Below, one piece after another: positions 14,538-46,702 of a DNA stretch of 46,892 nt (its first letter is position 1; the number at the start of each line of letters is the position of its first letter). This stretch comes from an uncultured Bacilli bacterium (lineage in GTDB: Bacteria > Bacillota_I > Bacilli_A > RF39 > UBA660), in NCBI GenBank assembly GCA_947625625.1, contig CANQPC010000008.1, positions 1 to 46,892 on the forward strand, given 5' to 3'. A model generated the notes under the pieces. That model was not told the DNA's origin. It did not search any database and saw nothing but the letters and a program-made list of their open reading frames with translations. A program made the position numbers and the translations under genes.

Positions 14538-14555
14538 CTTTCCTCCTCTATTAAT

Positions 14556-14584
14556 ATTTTATCACGATAATAATAGTTATTCAA
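14556..14584 (-). promoter_or_regulatory. Promoter of the nitroreductase operon
   Basis: Minus-strand TTGAAT (14579-14584), a 17-base spacer and TAAAAT (14556-14561), about 18 bases before the start. Confidence 0.6.
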
Positions 14585-14600
14585 TGATACTTTTGATAAG

Positions 14601-14629
14601 TTGTCATTTTTTTGCATTATCTTTATTAT
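14601..14629 (+). promoter_or_regulatory. Promoter of the sorting-signal protein gene
   Basis: Plus-strand TTGTCA (14601-14606), a 17-base spacer and TATTAT (14624-14629). The ten-base sequence TTGTCATTTT at the -35 box is repeated at 14648-14657. The predicted leader is about 135 bases long. Confidence 0.6.
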
Positions 14630-14670
14630 TATTATTATATTTAACTATTGTCATTTTAAACTTGAGATAT

Positions 14671-14711
14671 GATGGTATTAATTACCATCTTGGAAAAAGA
14701 TAGTTCCAAAA
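14671..14711 (+). promoter_or_regulatory. Two tandem hairpins in the leader of the sorting-signal protein gene
   Basis: GATGGTA-TTAAT-TACCATC forms a perfect seven-pair hairpin, directly followed by TTGGAA/TTCCAA, a six-pair stem with an eight-base loop. Neither is followed by a T-run, so they are not terminators. They could be an mRNA-stabilising or regulatory leader, or the first could be an operator. Confidence 0.4.
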
Positions 14712-14770
14712 TTTTACCAAGTATAAGAATTACTTTTCACTTTAAAATATAAATAAGGAGGTGAAAACTA

Positions 14771-15466
14771 ATGAAGAAAAAATTATTAGGTTACATGTCA
14801 GCATTTTTATTTACTGTAGCGGCCATACTTCCATATCACGTTTTAGCGGAAGAAGCTGATTCAACTAAATACGGAAAAATTACTGATATTTCTAAATCAG
14901 ACTCTGTTAAATCTGGTACTGGTGAAGACTTGGATGTAGTAATATCAAATAATGAGACTTCCAATGTTACTGTCGAATATGGTAAAAATAAAGGAATTAA
15001 AATTCAATATTTAGGTAGTAACTCTAGTGGAAGACCTGATAATGCAGCTTGGCTGGGAATTCACGTCACTGTTCCTACAAAGGCCGCTGCTGGTAGTGCC
15101 ACTTTTACTGTAAATGGCGGAACACCTGAAAAAATTGAAACTGACGGCGATTATTATTTTGGTATTACTGTAGACAAACTTAAAACAGCAGCTTCAAAAA
15201 ATACGCCAATTACTTATACATACGTATTTAATTGGGCCGATGGTATTAAACAGACAGTAAACGTAAAGATTTACCCTAAACAAATTGCCCTATTAGATAA
15301 AGAAGGAGATACTAATCTTTGGACGCCAGAAGATTATGCAAAATATGCTAAACAAGATGATATGCCTGGAACGGGAGATACAACTTCTTATTTCTTTGTC
15401 TCAGTAGTAGTTTTATTAGCATGTGCTGGAATTTATAACTTAGTATTAGCTAATTCTAAGAAATAG
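14771..15466 (+). CDS. Cell-wall-anchored surface protein with MPGTG sorting signal
   Basis: A 231-residue secreted protein. Residues 1-26 are a signal peptide ending VLA, a good signal peptidase site. The body (about 27-175) is probably beta-sandwich and carries no family I recognise. The C-terminus is a textbook sorting signal: MPGTG at 198-202, a hydrophobic span of about 22 residues and a short basic tail ending SKK. It differs from canonical LPxTG in its first residue. The ribosome binding site AAGGAGGTGA (14756-14765) is perfect, so high expression is expected. The next gene encodes a class B sortase, its probable anchoring enzyme; a strong terminator separates the two. Confidence 0.82.
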   Translation: MKKKLLGYMSAFLFTVAAILPYHVLAEEADSTKYGKITDISKSDSVKSGTGEDLDVVISNNETSNVTVEYGKNKGIKIQYLGSNSSGRPDNAAWLGIHVTVPTKAAAGSATFTVNGGTPEKIETDGDYYFGITVDKLKTAASKNTPITYTYVFNWADGIKQTVNVKIYPKQIALLDKEGDTNLWTPEDYAKYAKQDDMPGTGDTTSYFFVSVVVLLACAGIYNLVLANSKK

Positions 15467-15500
15467 GAGTAATTCTCCTATTTTCTTAGAAAATTTTTTT
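15454..15500 (+). terminator. Strong terminator between surface protein and sortase genes
   Basis: The 16-base left arm beginning TTCTAAGAA pairs with a right arm ending TTCTTAGAA (one bulged base), loop TAAT or similar, followed by seven T's. The stop codon of the surface protein gene lies within the left arm. Because no separate promoter is visible before the sortase gene, sortase would depend on read-through. Confidence 0.88.
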
Positions 15501-15517
15501 CATTAGAAAAAACCGCG

Positions 15518-16267
15518 ATGAAAAAGAAAAATATTTTACTAGCTATCATCTTTTTAAGTAGTTCACTTCTCTTTATTTTAGTACATATTTACTACAACAA
15601 AGTTTTAAATCATCAGCCTATTATTAGCGAAACTAAAGTCGTTCCTTCTCATAATGATAATAAAACAGATATTCCAAGTGAAGATGAGCTTAAATTAAAA
15701 GAAATTAATAAATTATATGAAACTAATAGTGACCTATTTGGATGGCTGACAGTCGAGGGAACTAATATTGATTACCCTGTCATGTATACGCAAAATGATG
15801 ATTACTATTTACATAGAGACTTCTATCAGAGGTACTTTAAGGCAGGTTCTTTATTTATCGATAAGCATAATACGACTAATCCTCGCGATACTAATATAAT
15901 TATTCACGGACACAGTATGAAAGATGGAAGTATGTTTCATGATCTTCTTAAATATAAAGATGTAGATTATTATTTAGAACACAAATATATTACTCTTTAT
16001 ACTTTAAAAGCAAAAGAAATATATGAAGTTATCGGAGTAATTATTTCTGAAGTTTATAATAATAATGATAATGTCTTTAAATACTATCAATTTTATAATG
16101 CTACAAATTCTGAAGAATATGATAATTATATCAAAAATATTAAAGAAAAATCGATTATTAGTATCGATACTACTTCGAAATTTAACGGTAATTTAATTAC
16201 TCTCTCCACTTGTGAATATTCCAAAGATAACAGTAGACTAGCAGTTATAGCTAAAAAAATAAACTAA
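15518..16267 (+). CDS. Class B sortase
   Basis: A 249-residue membrane-anchored transpeptidase that cuts sorting signals and links proteins to peptidoglycan. Residues 5-26 are an uncleaved signal anchor. The SrtB fold shows the motif IIHGHSM (catalytic H132), TLSTCEYSKDNSR with catalytic C232 and R240, and the class B helix region DLLKYKDVDYY. It follows its likely substrate (MPGTG protein) by 51 bases. No Shine-Dalgarno sequence is visible before the ATG (the preceding bases are AAAAAACCGCG) and a strong terminator lies upstream, so expression should be much lower than that of the substrate. Confidence 0.9.
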   Translation: MKKKNILLAIIFLSSSLLFILVHIYYNKVLNHQPIISETKVVPSHNDNKTDIPSEDELKLKEINKLYETNSDLFGWLTVEGTNIDYPVMYTQNDDYYLHRDFYQRYFKAGSLFIDKHNTTNPRDTNIIIHGHSMKDGSMFHDLLKYKDVDYYLEHKYITLYTLKAKEIYEVIGVIISEVYNNNDNVFKYYQFYNATNSEEYDNYIKNIKEKSIISIDTTSKFNGNLITLSTCEYSKDNSRLAVIAKKIN

Positions 16268-41247: not shown

Positions 41248-43671
41248 TTAAAAAACTATATTTTCAAATTTAGGAAATCTCTCTAATAACCAATCACTTT
41301 GCTTACTATCTTTAACATAGACAGTAATATTATTGTAATTACCAGAAAACATATTAACATAATTAGTTACATTAGAAAAGTCAGCTTTACTTAAATCTAA
41401 TTTTTCTAATAGTTTACAACCATAAAATATATGACTCATATTTTCTACCTTCGAAGTATCAAAAGTACTTAAATTTAGACTAGTTAAATTAGAGCATCCA
41501 TAAAACATATTAGCCATATTAGTTACATTCGAAGTATCAAAATTACTACCTAGAATTAATTCTTCTAAACTAGAACATCCTTCAAACATTTTACGCATAG
41601 TAGTTATATTTTTCGTATTAAAGTTACTTAAATCTAATTTTTTTAGACTAGAGCAACTTCTAAACATTCCACCATAAGCATATTCATAAGGTATATTCAT
41701 CGAAGTAACTTTGTCAGTATTGAAACTACTTAAATCTAATTCAGTTAAACTTCGGCAATCATCAAACATATCAGTCATATCTGTTACATTAGATGTATCA
41801 AAACTTTTAATATTAAGATTTTTTAATGCATTGCATCTCCAAAATGTCTGATACATACTTGTAACATTAGAAGTATCAAAAGTACTCAAATCTAATTCTA
41901 TAAGAGAAGTACATTCATAAAAAGTTCTATGCATGCTAGTACTCTTAACATAAAAATTACTTAAATCTATACTTTGAAGGCTAGTGCAATAGTTAAACAT
42001 ATCATAAGTTGAAGCCTCTCTAGCACTATTTAAATCATTATTATTTCTTAATGTTATACTAGTTAGATGTCTGCAGCCCTCAAACATATCGGAAAAATCT
42101 GTTACATTAGTAGTATCAAAAGTACTTACATCTAAATCTTTAATATTAGTACAGCCCAAAAACATACCTTGCATGTTTTCTACATTAGATGTATCAAAGT
42201 TACTTAAATCTAATTCAGTTAGCTTAGAGCAACTAGAAAACATGCCAGACATATTAGTAACATTTGAAGTATCAAAACTACTTACATTCAAGCTAGTCAA
42301 ACTACTGCAACCAGCAAACATGTTTACCATATTTTTTACTTTAGTTGTAATAAAATTACTCAAGTCTAAACTTGTTAGAGAAGAACAACCATTAAACATT
42401 ATAGCCATACTATTTACATTTGTAGTCTCAAAACTACTCAAATCCAAGTCTTTTAATTTAGAACATCCCCAAAACATATATGCTATATTAATTGCGCTTG
42501 ATGTATGAAAATTGCTTAAATTTATTCTCTCTAGATTAGAGCAATAGGCAAACATTTGCATCATATTTGTTACTTTTATAGGATTAAAGGAACTTAAGTC
42601 TAATTCTATTAAACCTCTACAACTATAGAACATTTGATACATACCAGTCACATTTTCAACATCAAAACTACTTAAATTAAGATTAGTCAAATTAAGGCAG
42701 CTTCCAAACATATATGACATACCTATTACTTCTTCCGTATTAAAATTACTTAAATCTAAACTTGTTATTTTAGTGCTTCCCGTAAACATACTATTCATAT
42801 TAGTTACTTTAGAAGTATCTAGTTTTGATACATCTATTTTAGTTAAATTCTTTAAATTAGCAAATAAATTACTTGCACTAGTATTTAAATTTATAGTACC
42901 TATTTTGCCTCCCATATATACTTCGTATAGACCATTATTATCAGAGTCTTCATACCAGAGCATTACAGTTTTATCTCCTTTAGAAGATATATCAAATGAT
43001 TTATCTATATTATCTGGTACAATATTATTTTCTACTGTTACGATACTTTCAATTTCTTCTCTCGTAATATCAGTATTTAAAAATTCTGATGTAGCTGAAG
43101 TACCACCTACTGCTCTTATATAGTTTTCATCATAGATAGCATCTGTTCCCTCGCCATAGAGATAAAATCTAAAGTTTTTATTACTCATGGTAATAGGATT
43201 ATCTCTCTTACCATCAATGTATATATATAAGGTATAGGTTAATTCTTTAGTAGTTATTACTTCGTTTTCGACAAATCTAATTGTCTCTCCTTCACTCTTA
43301 CCTTTGAAGTTATCACTTACGATTAGTTCATTTCCTTGATATAATTCATATATAAAAGTTTCTTCTTCTAACTCTTTAGGTAGTAAATCTAAAGACATAT
43401 ACATATTCATAACAGCACTGTCATCATCATGACATGTTTTATTTAATCTAACTTTAATCTCTTTCTTTAAACCATTTTCTTTCGATAAGACTGGTACTAA
43501 GTCTACTCCATTTATCGTTGGTCCTCCGGCAAAAGTAATTGTCGGAGCACATATTTCAAGTTTGACTAGTGCATCAGTAGTACTCTTCCAAATATACCAA
43601 GCTAGTGTACTACTTACTGAAAAGACTAATATACTAATCGAAATAAACATATATAATTTAGCTTTATTCAT
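41248..43671 (-). CDS. DUF285 (BspA-like) surface protein, copy 1
   Basis: An 807-residue secreted repeat protein. The N-terminus has a signal anchor (residues 8-28, SVSSTLAWYIWKS) resembling SipW/TasA-type signals. Residues 30-255 are a non-repeat domain, identical to that of copy 2 up to residue 242. Residues about 265-775 are a run of about 21 DUF285 repeats of 23-24 residues, pattern LDLSSFDTSNVTNMSGMF-x-GC, as in BspA-like surface proteins that bind host matrix or other cells. The end has YVKDSKQSDWLLERF. No sorting signal is seen, so anchoring is unclear. GAGG lies seven bases before the ATG. Expression is probably phase-variable through the promoter tract at 43776-43806. Confidence 0.9.
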   Translation of the reverse strand: MNKAKLYMFISISILVFSVSSTLAWYIWKSTTDALVKLEICAPTITFAGGPTINGVDLVPVLSKENGLKKEIKVRLNKTCHDDDSAVMNMYMSLDLLPKELEEETFIYELYQGNELIVSDNFKGKSEGETIRFVENEVITTKELTYTLYIYIDGKRDNPITMSNKNFRFYLYGEGTDAIYDENYIRAVGGTSATSEFLNTDITREEIESIVTVENNIVPDNIDKSFDISSKGDKTVMLWYEDSDNNGLYEVYMGGKIGTINLNTSASNLFANLKNLTKIDVSKLDTSKVTNMNSMFTGSTKITSLDLSNFNTEEVIGMSYMFGSCLNLTNLNLSSFDVENVTGMYQMFYSCRGLIELDLSSFNPIKVTNMMQMFAYCSNLERINLSNFHTSSAINIAYMFWGCSKLKDLDLSSFETTNVNSMAIMFNGCSSLTSLDLSNFITTKVKNMVNMFAGCSSLTSLNVSSFDTSNVTNMSGMFSSCSKLTELDLSNFDTSNVENMQGMFLGCTNIKDLDVSTFDTTNVTDFSDMFEGCRHLTSITLRNNNDLNSAREASTYDMFNYCTSLQSIDLSNFYVKSTSMHRTFYECTSLIELDLSTFDTSNVTSMYQTFWRCNALKNLNIKSFDTSNVTDMTDMFDDCRSLTELDLSSFNTDKVTSMNIPYEYAYGGMFRSCSSLKKLDLSNFNTKNITTMRKMFEGCSSLEELILGSNFDTSNVTNMANMFYGCSNLTSLNLSTFDTSKVENMSHIFYGCKLLEKLDLSKADFSNVTNYVNMFSGNYNNITVYVKDSKQSDWLLERFPKFENIVF

Positions 43672-43689
43672 AGTACTTCCTCACTTTCT

Positions 43690-43757
43690 AAGCAAAGAAA
43701 AAGACTATGAAAGAAAGGAAATAAGTTATTACTACCTACTTCTTCTTCATAGTCTTT
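43690..43757 (-). promoter_or_regulatory. Leader hairpin (possible attenuator) of DUF285 copy 1
   Basis: In the leader between promoter and ribosome binding site, a 12-pair perfect stem AAAGACTATGAA/TTCATAGTCTTT (43746-43757 with 43700-43711) is followed on the minus strand by TTTCTTTGCTT. It has the layout of an intrinsic terminator with a large loop of 34 bases. Confidence 0.6.
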
Positions 43758-43775
43758 AATACTACAAAATATTAT

Positions 43776-43806
43776 ATTATAAAGATTGAACCCCCCCCCA
43801 TGTTAA
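43776..43806 (-). promoter_or_regulatory. Promoter of DUF285 copy 1 with nine-G tract in the spacer
   Basis: Minus-strand TTAACA (43801-43806) and TATAAT (43776-43781) are 19 bases apart. The spacer contains nine consecutive G's (43791-43799). A second overlapping TATAAT lies at 43771-43776. An inverted repeat TTAAC/GTTAA lies just upstream of or on the -35 box. The tract could change the spacing by slippage. Confidence 0.75.
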
Positions 43807-43891
43807 CCTATTGTTAATACTTCTTTTATTCATGAGAGAGTCACCTTCCTTCTATCTTTACTACATACTAATTCTATCATAAATTTAGATT

Positions 43892-46702
43892 TTAGACAAC
43901 TAATATATTTTCAAATTTAGTAAATCTCTCTAATAACCAATCTCTTTGATTACTATCTTTAACATATATAAGAGAAGTAACAGGGACACCATTAAGCATA
44001 CCATTATAATTAGTTATATTAGAAAAATCAATATTTCTTAAATCGAGCATAGCTAAGCTTTTACAATTCCAAAACATGTTTGACATATTAATTCCCAGTA
44101 CATTATTAAAACTGCTTAAATCCAGACTTATTAAATTAGTACATCCATAAAACATACCACTCATATTAATTACCTTTGGAATAGTAAAGTTTTTTAAATT
44201 AATACTTTGCAATAAAGTACAACCAAGAAACATAGCTTGCATAGTAGTAACACTTGAAGTATCAAAACTACTTAAATCTAGATTAGTTAAACTAGAACAA
44301 CTATAAAACATATAACTCATGTTCTCCACTTTAGGAGTAGTAAAATTTGTTAAATTAATACTTTCTAATGAAGTACATCCATAAAACATATAACTCATAT
44401 TTGTAGCTTCAAGATTATTAAAATTACTTAAATCTAATATAGTTAATGCACTACAGCCATTAAACATGCTTTGCATATTAATTACTTTTTCTGTATTCAA
44501 ATTACTTATATCTAATTCTATTAAACTACTACAGCCATTAAACATGCTGGTAGTTTTTTCTACAACAGAATCAGTAAAACTACTTAAATCGATTGTCTTT
44601 AATTTTTTGCATCCATCAAACATACTAAGCATACTTACTACATTTGTAGCCACAAAGTTTTTACCAAAAGTTAATTCTTCTAAATTATTACATCCCGCAA
44701 ACATAGCATGCATAGAAGTTACATTCTCTGTATTAAAACTACTTAAGTCTAATTTAATTAAATTTTTACATCCTTGAAACAATCCTCCATAAATAACTCC
44801 ATCACCAGAATTCATTCTAATTACTTTTTCTGTATTAAAATTACCAACTTCTAGCTCTGTTAAATTTTGACAATTGTAGAACATTCCCATCATATTCTCT
44901 ACTTTAGAAGTATCAAATTTACTGACATCTAAAGATTTCAACTTTCTACAATTGCTAAACATTAAATACATGTTTGTAACATTTGGAGTACGAAAGCCAC
45001 TGATATCCAATTCTTCTAAACTAGAACAACTATCAAACATTTGAATCATACTTTCTACCTTTCCAGTATCGAAACTACTTAAGTTAAGATTAATTAATTT
45101 AGAACAGCCTTCAAACATGTATGCCATAGTAGTGACTTCCGGAGTATAAAAATTATCTAAATTTAATTTTTGTAAATTAGAACAAGAAATAAACATCCAA
45201 GCCATAGTAGTTACTTTATCTGTTTTAAAATTACTTAAGTCTAATTCTTCTAAACTAGAACAACTATAAAACATACTCTGCATATTCGTAACTTTTTCCG
45301 TATTAAAGCTTTTCAAATTTAAGCTTGTTAAACTAGAGCAACCGGAAAACATAGAGTTCATCGAAGTAGCACTAGATGTATCAAAATTATCAATATTTAA
45401 TTTAGCTAATTTAGTACAGCCACTAAACATTTCTGACATACTAGTTACTTTTTTAGTATTAAAATTACTTAAATCTAGTTCTATAAGTTCTTTACAACCA
45501 GTAAATGTTTCCCACATACTAGTCACATTAGAAGTATCAAAGCTACTTAAGTTTACTTTTTTTAAAGAAGAACAGGAAAGAAACATAGAATTAATGGACC
45601 CTACCTTTGAAGTATTAAAGTTACTTAAATCTAAACTTTCTATATTACGACAATGTTCAAACATACGACCCAAATCAGTTACACTCTTCGTATTAAAACT
45701 ATTTAAATTTACTTTTTTTAAATTAGTACAACCACTAAACATATAACGCAGAGTAGTAACATTTTCCGTATTGAAACTACTTAAATCTAAACTTTCTATA
45801 TTAGAGCATCCTTGAAACATATTTAGCATACTTGTTACTTTCGAAGTATCGATAAATGATACATCTATTTTAGTTAAATTCTTTAAATTAGCAAACAAAC
45901 TATTTGCACTAGTATTTAAGTTTACAGTACCTATTTCTCCTCCCATATATACTTCGTATAGACCATTGCCATCACTATCTTCATACCAGAGCATTACAGT
46001 TTTATCTCCTTTAGAAGATATATCAAATGATTTATCTATATTATCTGGTACAATATTATTTTCTACTGTTACGATACTTTCAATTTCTTCTCTCGTAATA
46101 TCAGTATTTAAAAATTCTGATGTAGCTGAAGTACCACCTACTGCTCTTATATAGTTTTCATCATAGATAGCATCTGTTCCCTCGCCATAGAGATAAAATC
46201 TAAAGTTTTTATTACTCATGGTAATAGGATTATCTCTCTTACCATCAATGTATATATATAAGGTATAGGTTAATTCTTTAGTAGTTATTACTTCGTTTTC
46301 GACAAATCTAATTGTCTCTCCTTCACTCTTACCTTTGAAGTTATCACTTACGATTAGTTCATTTCCTTGATATAATTCATATATAAAAGTTTCTTCTTCT
46401 AACTCTTTAGGTAGTAAATCTAAAGACATATACATATTCATAACAGCACTGTCATCATCATGACATGTTTTATTTAATCTAACTTTAATCTCTTTCTTTA
46501 AACCATTTTCTTTCGATAAGACTGGTACTAAGTCTACTCCATTTATCGTTGGTCCTCCGGCAAAAGTAATTGTCGGAGCACATATTTCAAGTTTGACTAG
46601 TGCATCAGTAGTACTCTTCCAAATATACCAAGCTAGTGTACTACTTACTGAAAAGACTAATATACTAATCGAAATAAACATATATAATTTAGCTTTATTC
46701 AT
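43892..46702 (-). CDS. DUF285 (BspA-like) surface protein, copy 2
   Basis: A 936-residue secreted repeat protein with the same signal anchor and N-terminal domain as copy 1 (identical over the first 242 residues). The repeat region diverges and is longer, about 27 DUF285 repeats (SLDLSSFNTENVTTLRYMFSGC type), then YVKDSNQRDWLLERF. The repeated motif is typical for BspA-like adhesins. It has the same promoter, nine-G tract and leader. Downstream it runs into the copy 1 upstream region. Difference in the repeat part indicates that the exposed surface varies while the anchor domain is conserved. Confidence 0.9.
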   Translation of the reverse strand: MNKAKLYMFISISILVFSVSSTLAWYIWKSTTDALVKLEICAPTITFAGGPTINGVDLVPVLSKENGLKKEIKVRLNKTCHDDDSAVMNMYMSLDLLPKELEEETFIYELYQGNELIVSDNFKGKSEGETIRFVENEVITTKELTYTLYIYIDGKRDNPITMSNKNFRFYLYGEGTDAIYDENYIRAVGGTSATSEFLNTDITREEIESIVTVENNIVPDNIDKSFDISSKGDKTVMLWYEDSDGNGLYEVYMGGEIGTVNLNTSANSLFANLKNLTKIDVSFIDTSKVTSMLNMFQGCSNIESLDLSSFNTENVTTLRYMFSGCTNLKKVNLNSFNTKSVTDLGRMFEHCRNIESLDLSNFNTSKVGSINSMFLSCSSLKKVNLSSFDTSNVTSMWETFTGCKELIELDLSNFNTKKVTSMSEMFSGCTKLAKLNIDNFDTSSATSMNSMFSGCSSLTSLNLKSFNTEKVTNMQSMFYSCSSLEELDLSNFKTDKVTTMAWMFISCSNLQKLNLDNFYTPEVTTMAYMFEGCSKLINLNLSSFDTGKVESMIQMFDSCSSLEELDISGFRTPNVTNMYLMFSNCRKLKSLDVSKFDTSKVENMMGMFYNCQNLTELEVGNFNTEKVIRMNSGDGVIYGGLFQGCKNLIKLDLSSFNTENVTSMHAMFAGCNNLEELTFGKNFVATNVVSMLSMFDGCKKLKTIDLSSFTDSVVEKTTSMFNGCSSLIELDISNLNTEKVINMQSMFNGCSALTILDLSNFNNLEATNMSYMFYGCTSLESINLTNFTTPKVENMSYMFYSCSSLTNLDLSSFDTSSVTTMQAMFLGCTLLQSINLKNFTIPKVINMSGMFYGCTNLISLDLSSFNNVLGINMSNMFWNCKSLAMLDLRNIDFSNITNYNGMLNGVPVTSLIYVKDSNQRDWLLERFTKFENILVV

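What the first reader, a model, noticed from the sequence alone, without database searches (positions are those of the whole stretch)
14771..16267. MPGTG sorting-signal protein paired with a class B sortase under low expression
The substrate has a perfect ribosome binding site, while the sortase is behind a strong terminator and lacks a visible Shine-Dalgarno sequence. That design would give many substrates per enzyme. The MPGTG motif differs from the NPxTG-type signals of well-studied SrtB and suggests a dedicated specificity.
Basis: partly seen in the sequence, partly recalled or inferred. Interest (0 to 1): 0.6.

Follow-up and report, generated by a model that had tools for sequence, protein, structure and literature searches.

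The report
Dedicated sortase–substrate pair with leaky terminator
A small bacterium carries a two-gene cassette in which a surface protein is followed by a hairpin and then by the enzyme that probably staples it to the cell wall, and related genomes suggest that the enzyme's binding loop and the protein's tail go together as a matched pair.

Summary
The two genes are real: a 231-aa secreted protein with a DDMPGTG sorting signal (14771-15466) and a class B sortase (15518-16267). A stable hairpin lies between them, and the sortase is the only one of 36 window ORFs without a Shine-Dalgarno match. Relatives refine the reading. Sixteen of 18 close sortases in the family sit just behind a PxTG protein, and a T-rich hairpin recurs in the gap (12 of 18 paired loci). 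Met is not the rule: the first position is V, T, A or M, usually after two acidic residues. These sortases form one clade with a 7-8-residue insert in the beta6/beta7 loop, which is known to read this position. Short-loop class B sortases mostly neighbour N/S-P-x-T-G/S tails. One ectodomain family occurs with both tail types, even within this genome. So I support a dedicated enzyme-substrate cassette, probably with excess substrate through partial termination; 'MPGTG specificity' as such is not supported. Weak points: termination and cleavage are unmeasured, the hairpin's T-run is offset, the loop-tail link has essentially one origin, and the missing Shine-Dalgarno is peculiar to this species. 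It is a new variant of a known kind.

The parts
14601..14629 (+). Best promoter-like site upstream of the substrate (TTGTCA-17-TATTAT)
   Evidence: consensus scan only; 40 sites found against 33 expected, so weak
14755..14762 (+). Shine-Dalgarno AAGGAGGT of the substrate gene, 8 nt before ATG
14771..15466 (+). Substrate gene: 231-aa secreted surface protein with a C-terminal sorting signal
   Evidence: no Pfam family over cut-off
14771..14848 (+). Probable signal peptide (MKKK...VLA)
   Evidence: hydrophobic stretch; cleavage site inferred by eye
15356..15376 (+). Sorting signal DDMPGTG, followed by a hydrophobic helix and SKK to 15463
15454..15491 (+). Hairpin overlapping the substrate stop codon
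   Evidence: recurs in relatives
15494..15500 (+). Run of seven T, offset about 3 nt from the stem
15518..16267 (+). Class B sortase gene, 249 aa, no Shine-Dalgarno
   Evidence: predicted fold pLDDT 91.6, Foldseek hit to S. aureus SrtB-substrate complex E 6e-22
15521..15607 (+). N-terminal membrane-anchor helix of the sortase (residues 2-30)
15911..15913 (+). Catalytic His132 codon
   Evidence: invariant in A4
16055..16099 (+). Extended beta6/beta7 loop, residues 180-194 (YNNNDNVFKYYQFYN)
16211..16213 (+). Catalytic Cys232 codon
16235..16237 (+). Catalytic Arg240 codon

Best explanation
The locus is a self-contained anchoring cassette. The substrate is exported, kept in the membrane by its tail, and cut by the neighbouring class B sortase between Thr and Gly of D-D-M-P-G-T-G, then joined to the cell wall. 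The enzyme belongs to a class B clade with an enlarged beta6/beta7 loop that goes with acidic residues and then a small or hydrophobic residue (V/T/A, here M) before PxTG, so the pair works beside a second, short-loop class B sortase whose likely clients have [P/S/N]PxTG tails. Both genes share the substrate's promoter; a hairpin at the substrate stop codon ends most transcripts, and read-through plus weak initiation gives few enzyme molecules per many substrates. Shown: the genes, signal, hairpin, clade, loop insert, and their co-occurrence in relatives. Inferred: cleavage, wall attachment, loop as cause of specificity, read-through control.
For: Class B by model, alignment and fold, catalytic His/Cys/Arg present. 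Adjacency in 16 of 18 long-loop sortases of the family plus two Clostridia loci. Sorting signal P, T, G invariant and Asp near-invariant in 17 tails. Adjacent-tail P4: long loop 16 of 16 V/T/A/M; short loop 4 of 19 I or A, the rest N 12 and S 3 (Fisher p 2e-6, not corrected for kinship); Asp at P6 15 of 16 versus 0 of 19. The ectodomain family, scored without its tail, is found in both tail classes. Own genome: at least 7 other [P/S/N]PxTG proteins and a short-loop class B sortase. Hairpin with T-rich tail in 12 of 18 paired gaps; in family loci 9 of 15 sortase gaps versus 10 of 73 control gaps. Literature: P4 is the likely specificity determinant of C. difficile SrtB (PMC5118464, passages); B. 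anthracis SrtB uses P5 Asp (PMC11987632, passages); internal terminators give substrate-binding-protein excess in Clostridia (PMC9045158, abstract).
Against: Long loop arose essentially once on the tree (2 label changes), so loop and tail type are one correlated event, not many. Eleven of 29 long-loop sortases have no sorting-signal gene just upstream (L058, L068 and nine Clostridia loci). Three short-loop sortases sit by IPKTG tails and one by APKTG, so a hydrophobic P4 does not need the long loop. The simple terminator scan found no site, the T-run is offset, and L057 and L062 have no room for a terminator. The YY pair that holds the P4-contact Tyr is kept in both loop classes, so the insert's role is open. 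G008 carries a close substrate (L006) with no sortase beside it.
Confidence: 0.68

Rival explanations
1. The pair is a minimal pilus: the class B sortase polymerises the substrate, as Spy0129 does with EVPTG pilins, instead of (or before) attaching single copies to the wall.
For: A class B pilus sortase is known with hydrophobic signals, (E/Q/V)(V/P)PTG (PMC3019223, passages); excess subunit over enzyme suits a polymer; Foldseek also matches Spy0129 and the S. pneumoniae pilus SrtB.
Against: One substrate per cassette, no tip or base pilin beside it; nearest solved relatives by sequence are anchoring SrtBs and Spy0129 ranks lower. An acceptor lysine was not looked for.
Confidence: 0.17
2. The substrate is served by the genome's second class B sortase (contig 6), and the adjacent enzyme is redundant or serves other clients.
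For: A second class B sortase exists; one same-genus genome has a close substrate without an adjacent sortase; the window sortase has no SD.
Against: Tail classes differ by sortase type; adjacency kept in 16 of 18.
Confidence: 0.13
3. The hairpin is just the substrate mRNA's 3' end or a stabiliser, and sortase level is set by translation or an own promoter; there is no stoichiometric design.
For: T-rich hairpins are common in this genome's gaps (11 of 32 gaps of 30-200 nt at -8 kcal/mol or lower); scan negative; no efficiency data.
Against: Enriched in these gaps over 73 control gaps; no promoter-like site before the sortase.
Confidence: 0.25

Closest known systems
Clostridioides difficile SrtB and its (S/P)PXTG substrates
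   Same: class B fold; PxTG signal cut between T and G; P4 as likely determinant (PMC4155245, PMC5118464, passages)
   Different: one housekeeping-like enzyme with several clients, short beta6/beta7 loop, P4 is S or P. This genome's contig 6 sortase resembles it more than the window's does (loop 30)
Streptococcus AbpA-SrtB gene pair
   Same: class B sortase next to a single dedicated substrate with its own signal (PMC4974636, abstract and passages)
   Different: LPKTS plus a three-residue tail without a hydrophobic helix; NCBIfam's model of that group scores the window enzyme at 61.6, cut-off 200
B. anthracis SrtB (NPKTG)
   Same: best sequence match; uses Asp at P5 and P2' (PMC11987632, passages), both present in DDMPGTGD
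   Different: P4 is Asn; shorter loop (alignment)
S. pyogenes Spy0129 pilus sortase
   Same: class B with hydrophobic residues in the signal (PMC3019223, passages)
   Different: multi-pilin operon and polymerising function; only 69.7 bits
Internal terminators of ABC-importer operons in cellulolytic Clostridia
   Same: stem-loop after the first gene gives excess of the surface component (PMC9045158, abstract)
   Different: substrate-binding protein and translocator, measured there; here only predicted

Membership tests
Class B sortase (TIGR03064) | score over curated cut-off | tested here: met
   163.9 bits, cut-off 153.75
Class B sortase (TIGR03064) | His-Cys-Arg active site | tested here: met
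   His132, Cys232, Arg240
Class B sortase (TIGR03064) | sortase barrel with a helix in the beta6/beta7 region | tested here: met
   model pLDDT 91.6, helix 198-211; ranks 1-19 in the PDB search are class B entries
Class B sortase (TIGR03064) | transpeptidase activity | not testable with these tools
   needs protein
Sortase substrate (cell-wall sorting signal) | signal peptide, PxTG, hydrophobic stretch, positive end | tested here: met
   the Pfam anchor model PF00746 did not list it in the own-genome search
NPQTN/Isd-type SrtB system | NPQTN-like signal and haem-uptake neighbours | tested here: not met
   signal MPGTG; neighbours are DUF362, nitroreductase-like, metal-dependent-hydrolase-like and NlpC/P60-like genes
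(S/P)PXTG C. difficile-type SrtB | S or P at P4 of the client | tested here: not met
   M here; V/T/A in relatives
AbpA-type SrtB (NF040525) | curated cut-off 200 bits; LPKTxAVK tail | tested here: not met
   61.6 bits; tail differs
Class B pilus sortase (Spy0129-like) | polymerises pilins via an acceptor lysine | not testable with these tools
   needs wall extracts
Intrinsic terminator | stable stem followed directly by a U-run | tested here: inconclusive
   stem met; U-run offset, simple scan negative

The most novel reading that the evidence does not exclude
There is an unrecognised class B sortase sub-class, marked by a 7-8-residue insert in the beta6/beta7 loop (VYxxxxxVFKYYxFYN), that reads an acidic-acidic-[V/T/A/M]-P-x-T-G signal and travels as a substrate-attenuator-enzyme cassette. 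The same surface domain has been re-tailed to fit either this sub-class or the short-loop NPxTS sub-class, so enzyme loop and signal are exchanged as a matched unit, giving two orthogonal anchoring channels in one cell.
Probability: 0.45. Interest if true: 0.6.

Novelty: new variant of a known kind. Interest (0 to 1): 0.45.

Why it matters
How class B sortases choose their clients is still open. Here nature supplies matched sets: one ectodomain with two tail types, and two loop types of enzyme, sometimes in a single 1.2-Mb genome. That makes the loop-to-signal code directly testable by peptide cleavage and loop swaps, and could give orthogonal sortases for protein ligation. The hairpin offers a simple case of substrate-over-enzyme dosing.

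Tried and rejected
Tried, led nowhere or rejected. (1) MPxTG as a genome-wide code: 3 DNA pattern hits, one being this gene, one inside a collagen-like protein, one with no ORF reading MPxTG. (2) Fold of the substrate ectodomain: model pLDDT 69 from 3 sequences, no PDB match at E below 0.001, TM-score by query length at most 0.27 in the 50 rows listed; no function claimed. (3) Rfam element at the locus: none. (4) Upstream box TTACCAAGTATA shared by three loci: not enriched in the genome, 19 hits versus 17 for the reversed control. (5) A haem-uptake role: no such neighbours. (6) Phage or viral copies: one search gave no search because the alignment lacks a conserved stretch; not pursued. (7) Pfam label for the ectodomain: only PBP5_C at E 0.058, below cut-off. 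(8) Literature: nine searches in an open-licence library listed no paper on this cassette or loop sub-class; that is not proof of absence.

Rows dropped before counts: L061 and L063 (PxTG present, hydrophobic tail lost, P4 = V in both) are outside the 16; L112 (sortase cut by the contig end) and L049 (loop 36 without FKYY, outside the clade) are in neither the 16 nor the 19; L013 and L056 are copies of L007, L005 and L052 of L004. Control gaps include one near-duplicate region (L065 and L107). Four further strong sortase matches (G272:C9, G131:C4, G303:C74, G106:C10) were not fetched and are not counted.

Full report
Observation. The first encodes a secreted protein whose C-terminus has DDMPGTG, a hydrophobic stretch and SKK. 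The second is a class B sortase by curated model, by sequence match to solved SrtB enzymes of B. anthracis, Listeria, Clostridium and S. aureus and by a confident predicted fold (pLDDT 91.6) that matches 19 class B PDB chains before any other class. His132, Cys232 and Arg240 are in place.

Between the genes a hairpin covers the substrate stop codon (15454-15491) and folds far better than shuffles. It is the strongest of 32 co-directional gaps of 30-200 nt in about 93 kb of this genome, of which 11 have a T-rich hairpin at -8 kcal/mol or lower. The simple terminator scan did not report it, probably because the seven-T run starts a few bases after the stem; its strength is unproven. The sortase start has no Shine-Dalgarno match; 33 of 36 window ORFs have one of at least 4 nt when the best in-frame start is chosen, and the sortase is the only one scoring 0. 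No promoter-like site precedes the sortase on its strand after 14639.

The genome. The window's genome (1.16 Mb, 92% complete) has four sortases: the window's; a second class B enzyme on contig 6 (TIGR03064 178.9 bits); a class C/D-like enzyme beside a SpaA protein ending in a VPGTS signal; and one fused to its own adhesin. At least seven other proteins end in [P/S/N]PxTG, six of them with the same GDIN...KIA-type tail, in clusters on contigs 2 and 9. They were found through pattern and profile searches, so the number is a lower bound.

The relatives. In 291 family genomes the closest sortases fetched (L053-L068, less the copy L056), together with the window's, L007 and L009, make 18 long-loop enzymes; 16 have a PxTG protein immediately upstream. 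L058 and L068 do not. Two Clostridia loci, L014 and L020, show the same pair. Neighbouring genes differ from genome to genome, so the two genes hold together as a unit. In 17 aligned tails Pro, Thr and Gly are invariant and the Asp before is near-invariant, while the first motif position is V, T, A or, only here, M. MPGTG is one spelling of a D-D-[V/T/A/M]-P-x-T-G signal.

Enzyme and tail go together. These sortases have a beta6/beta7 loop of 37-38 residues between fixed anchors, with VYxxxxxVFKYYxFYN, against 30 in C. difficile SrtB and in the genome's other class B sortase. In a tree built without the loop columns, 29 of 30 long-loop rows form one group (SH-aLRT 93), with 2 label changes against 24.1 in shuffles. 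Among proteins encoded next to a class B sortase (37 rows), P4 is V/T/A/M in 16 of 16 long-loop cases (V 8, T 6, A 1, M 1) and in short-loop cases N 12, S 3, I 3, A 1 of 19; two rows fit neither class. Asp at P6 is 15 of 16 against 0 of 19, Asp at P2' 3 of 16 against 16 of 19. An ectodomain-only profile finds the same surface domain in both sets: with long-loop enzymes as substrate-then-sortase, and with short-loop enzymes in divergent pairs with NPxTS/G tails (10 loci; in one of them, L112, the sortase is cut by the contig end). This genome has both tail types on that domain (the window, and L128 10031-10933 on contig 9), and so does G027 (L054, L010). So the tail follows the enzyme and not the domain. 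This is one evolutionary event in effect, and short-loop enzymes next to IPKTG (L025, L027, L081) show that the loop is not needed for a hydrophobic P4. Eleven of 29 long-loop sortases have no such gene just upstream.

What the loop may do. From the literature, P4 is the likely specificity determinant of C. difficile SrtB and touches beta6/beta7 residues (PMC5118464, passages); swapping this loop changes SrtA to SrtB preference (as cited in PMC3019223, passages); B. anthracis SrtB also uses Asp at P5 and P2' (PMC11987632, passages), both present in DDMPGTGD. In my alignment the insert lies before a YY pair that both loop classes keep, and in the model it forms a long loop before the helix 198-211. 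That the insert shapes the P4 pocket is inference.

Expression. In 18 paired loci 12 gaps have a T-rich hairpin at -8 or lower; L057 and L062 have almost no gap. In family loci with gaps of 20-105 nt, 9 of 15 gaps before long-loop sortases (two of them without a substrate upstream) versus 10 of 73 control gaps have one. Several nearest relatives repeat the element AAATAGGA...TCCTATTT over the stop codon. Seventeen of the 18 loci have some SD match before the sortase; only the window has none. A terminator after the first gene giving excess surface component has been measured for ABC importers of Clostridia (PMC9045158, abstract), which makes the same dosing plausible here. It is not measured here.

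Comparison and novelty. Single-substrate class B pairs exist (AbpA-SrtB, PMC4974636, abstract and passages), but with another tail, and the window enzyme is far below that model's cut-off. The housekeeping-like class B enzyme with (S/P)PXTG clients (PMC4155245, passages) resembles the contig 6 enzyme more than this one. I rate the window cassette as a new variant of a known kind. Nine literature searches listed nothing on the cassette or the loop sub-class in the library held.

Noticed in passing
L132:1288-4287 (+), contig 1 of the window's genome; L147 in a same-genus genome: One 999-aa ORF joins a thioester domain, five SpaA domains, a VPITG signal, two hydrophobic stretches and a sortase domain: an adhesin fused to a sortase. 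A same-genus genome has the same SpaA-signal-sortase layout with VPNTG in a 984-aa frame; the other matches listed lie in frames of about 156-255 aa.
   Followed up: partly
L129 3526-8900 and L128 8510-10933: Four and two tandem surface proteins with near-identical [P/S/N]PxTGDIN...KIA tails but different ectodomains; likely clients of the contig 6 sortase.
   Followed up: partly
L010, L112-L114, L116-L119, L121, L124: Divergent gene pairs: a short-loop class B sortase facing a surface protein of the window substrate's family with an NPxTS/G tail.
   Followed up: yes
L061, L063: Substrate genes next to long-loop sortases whose frame ends soon after PxTG, without the hydrophobic tail: possible frameshift or decay.
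   Followed up: no
window 41248-46702: Two tandem long DUF285/leucine-rich-repeat proteins with the same N-terminus.
   Followed up: no
window 14538-14770: Upstream of the substrate: an inverted repeat GATGGTA-N5-TACCATC and a TTACCAAGTATA box shared with L006 and L007; the box is not enriched genome-wide.
   Followed up: partly
L069, L071, L073, L076, L077, L079: Class B sortases inside open frames of about 540-840 aa, so perhaps with large N-terminal extensions; domains not examined.
   Followed up: no
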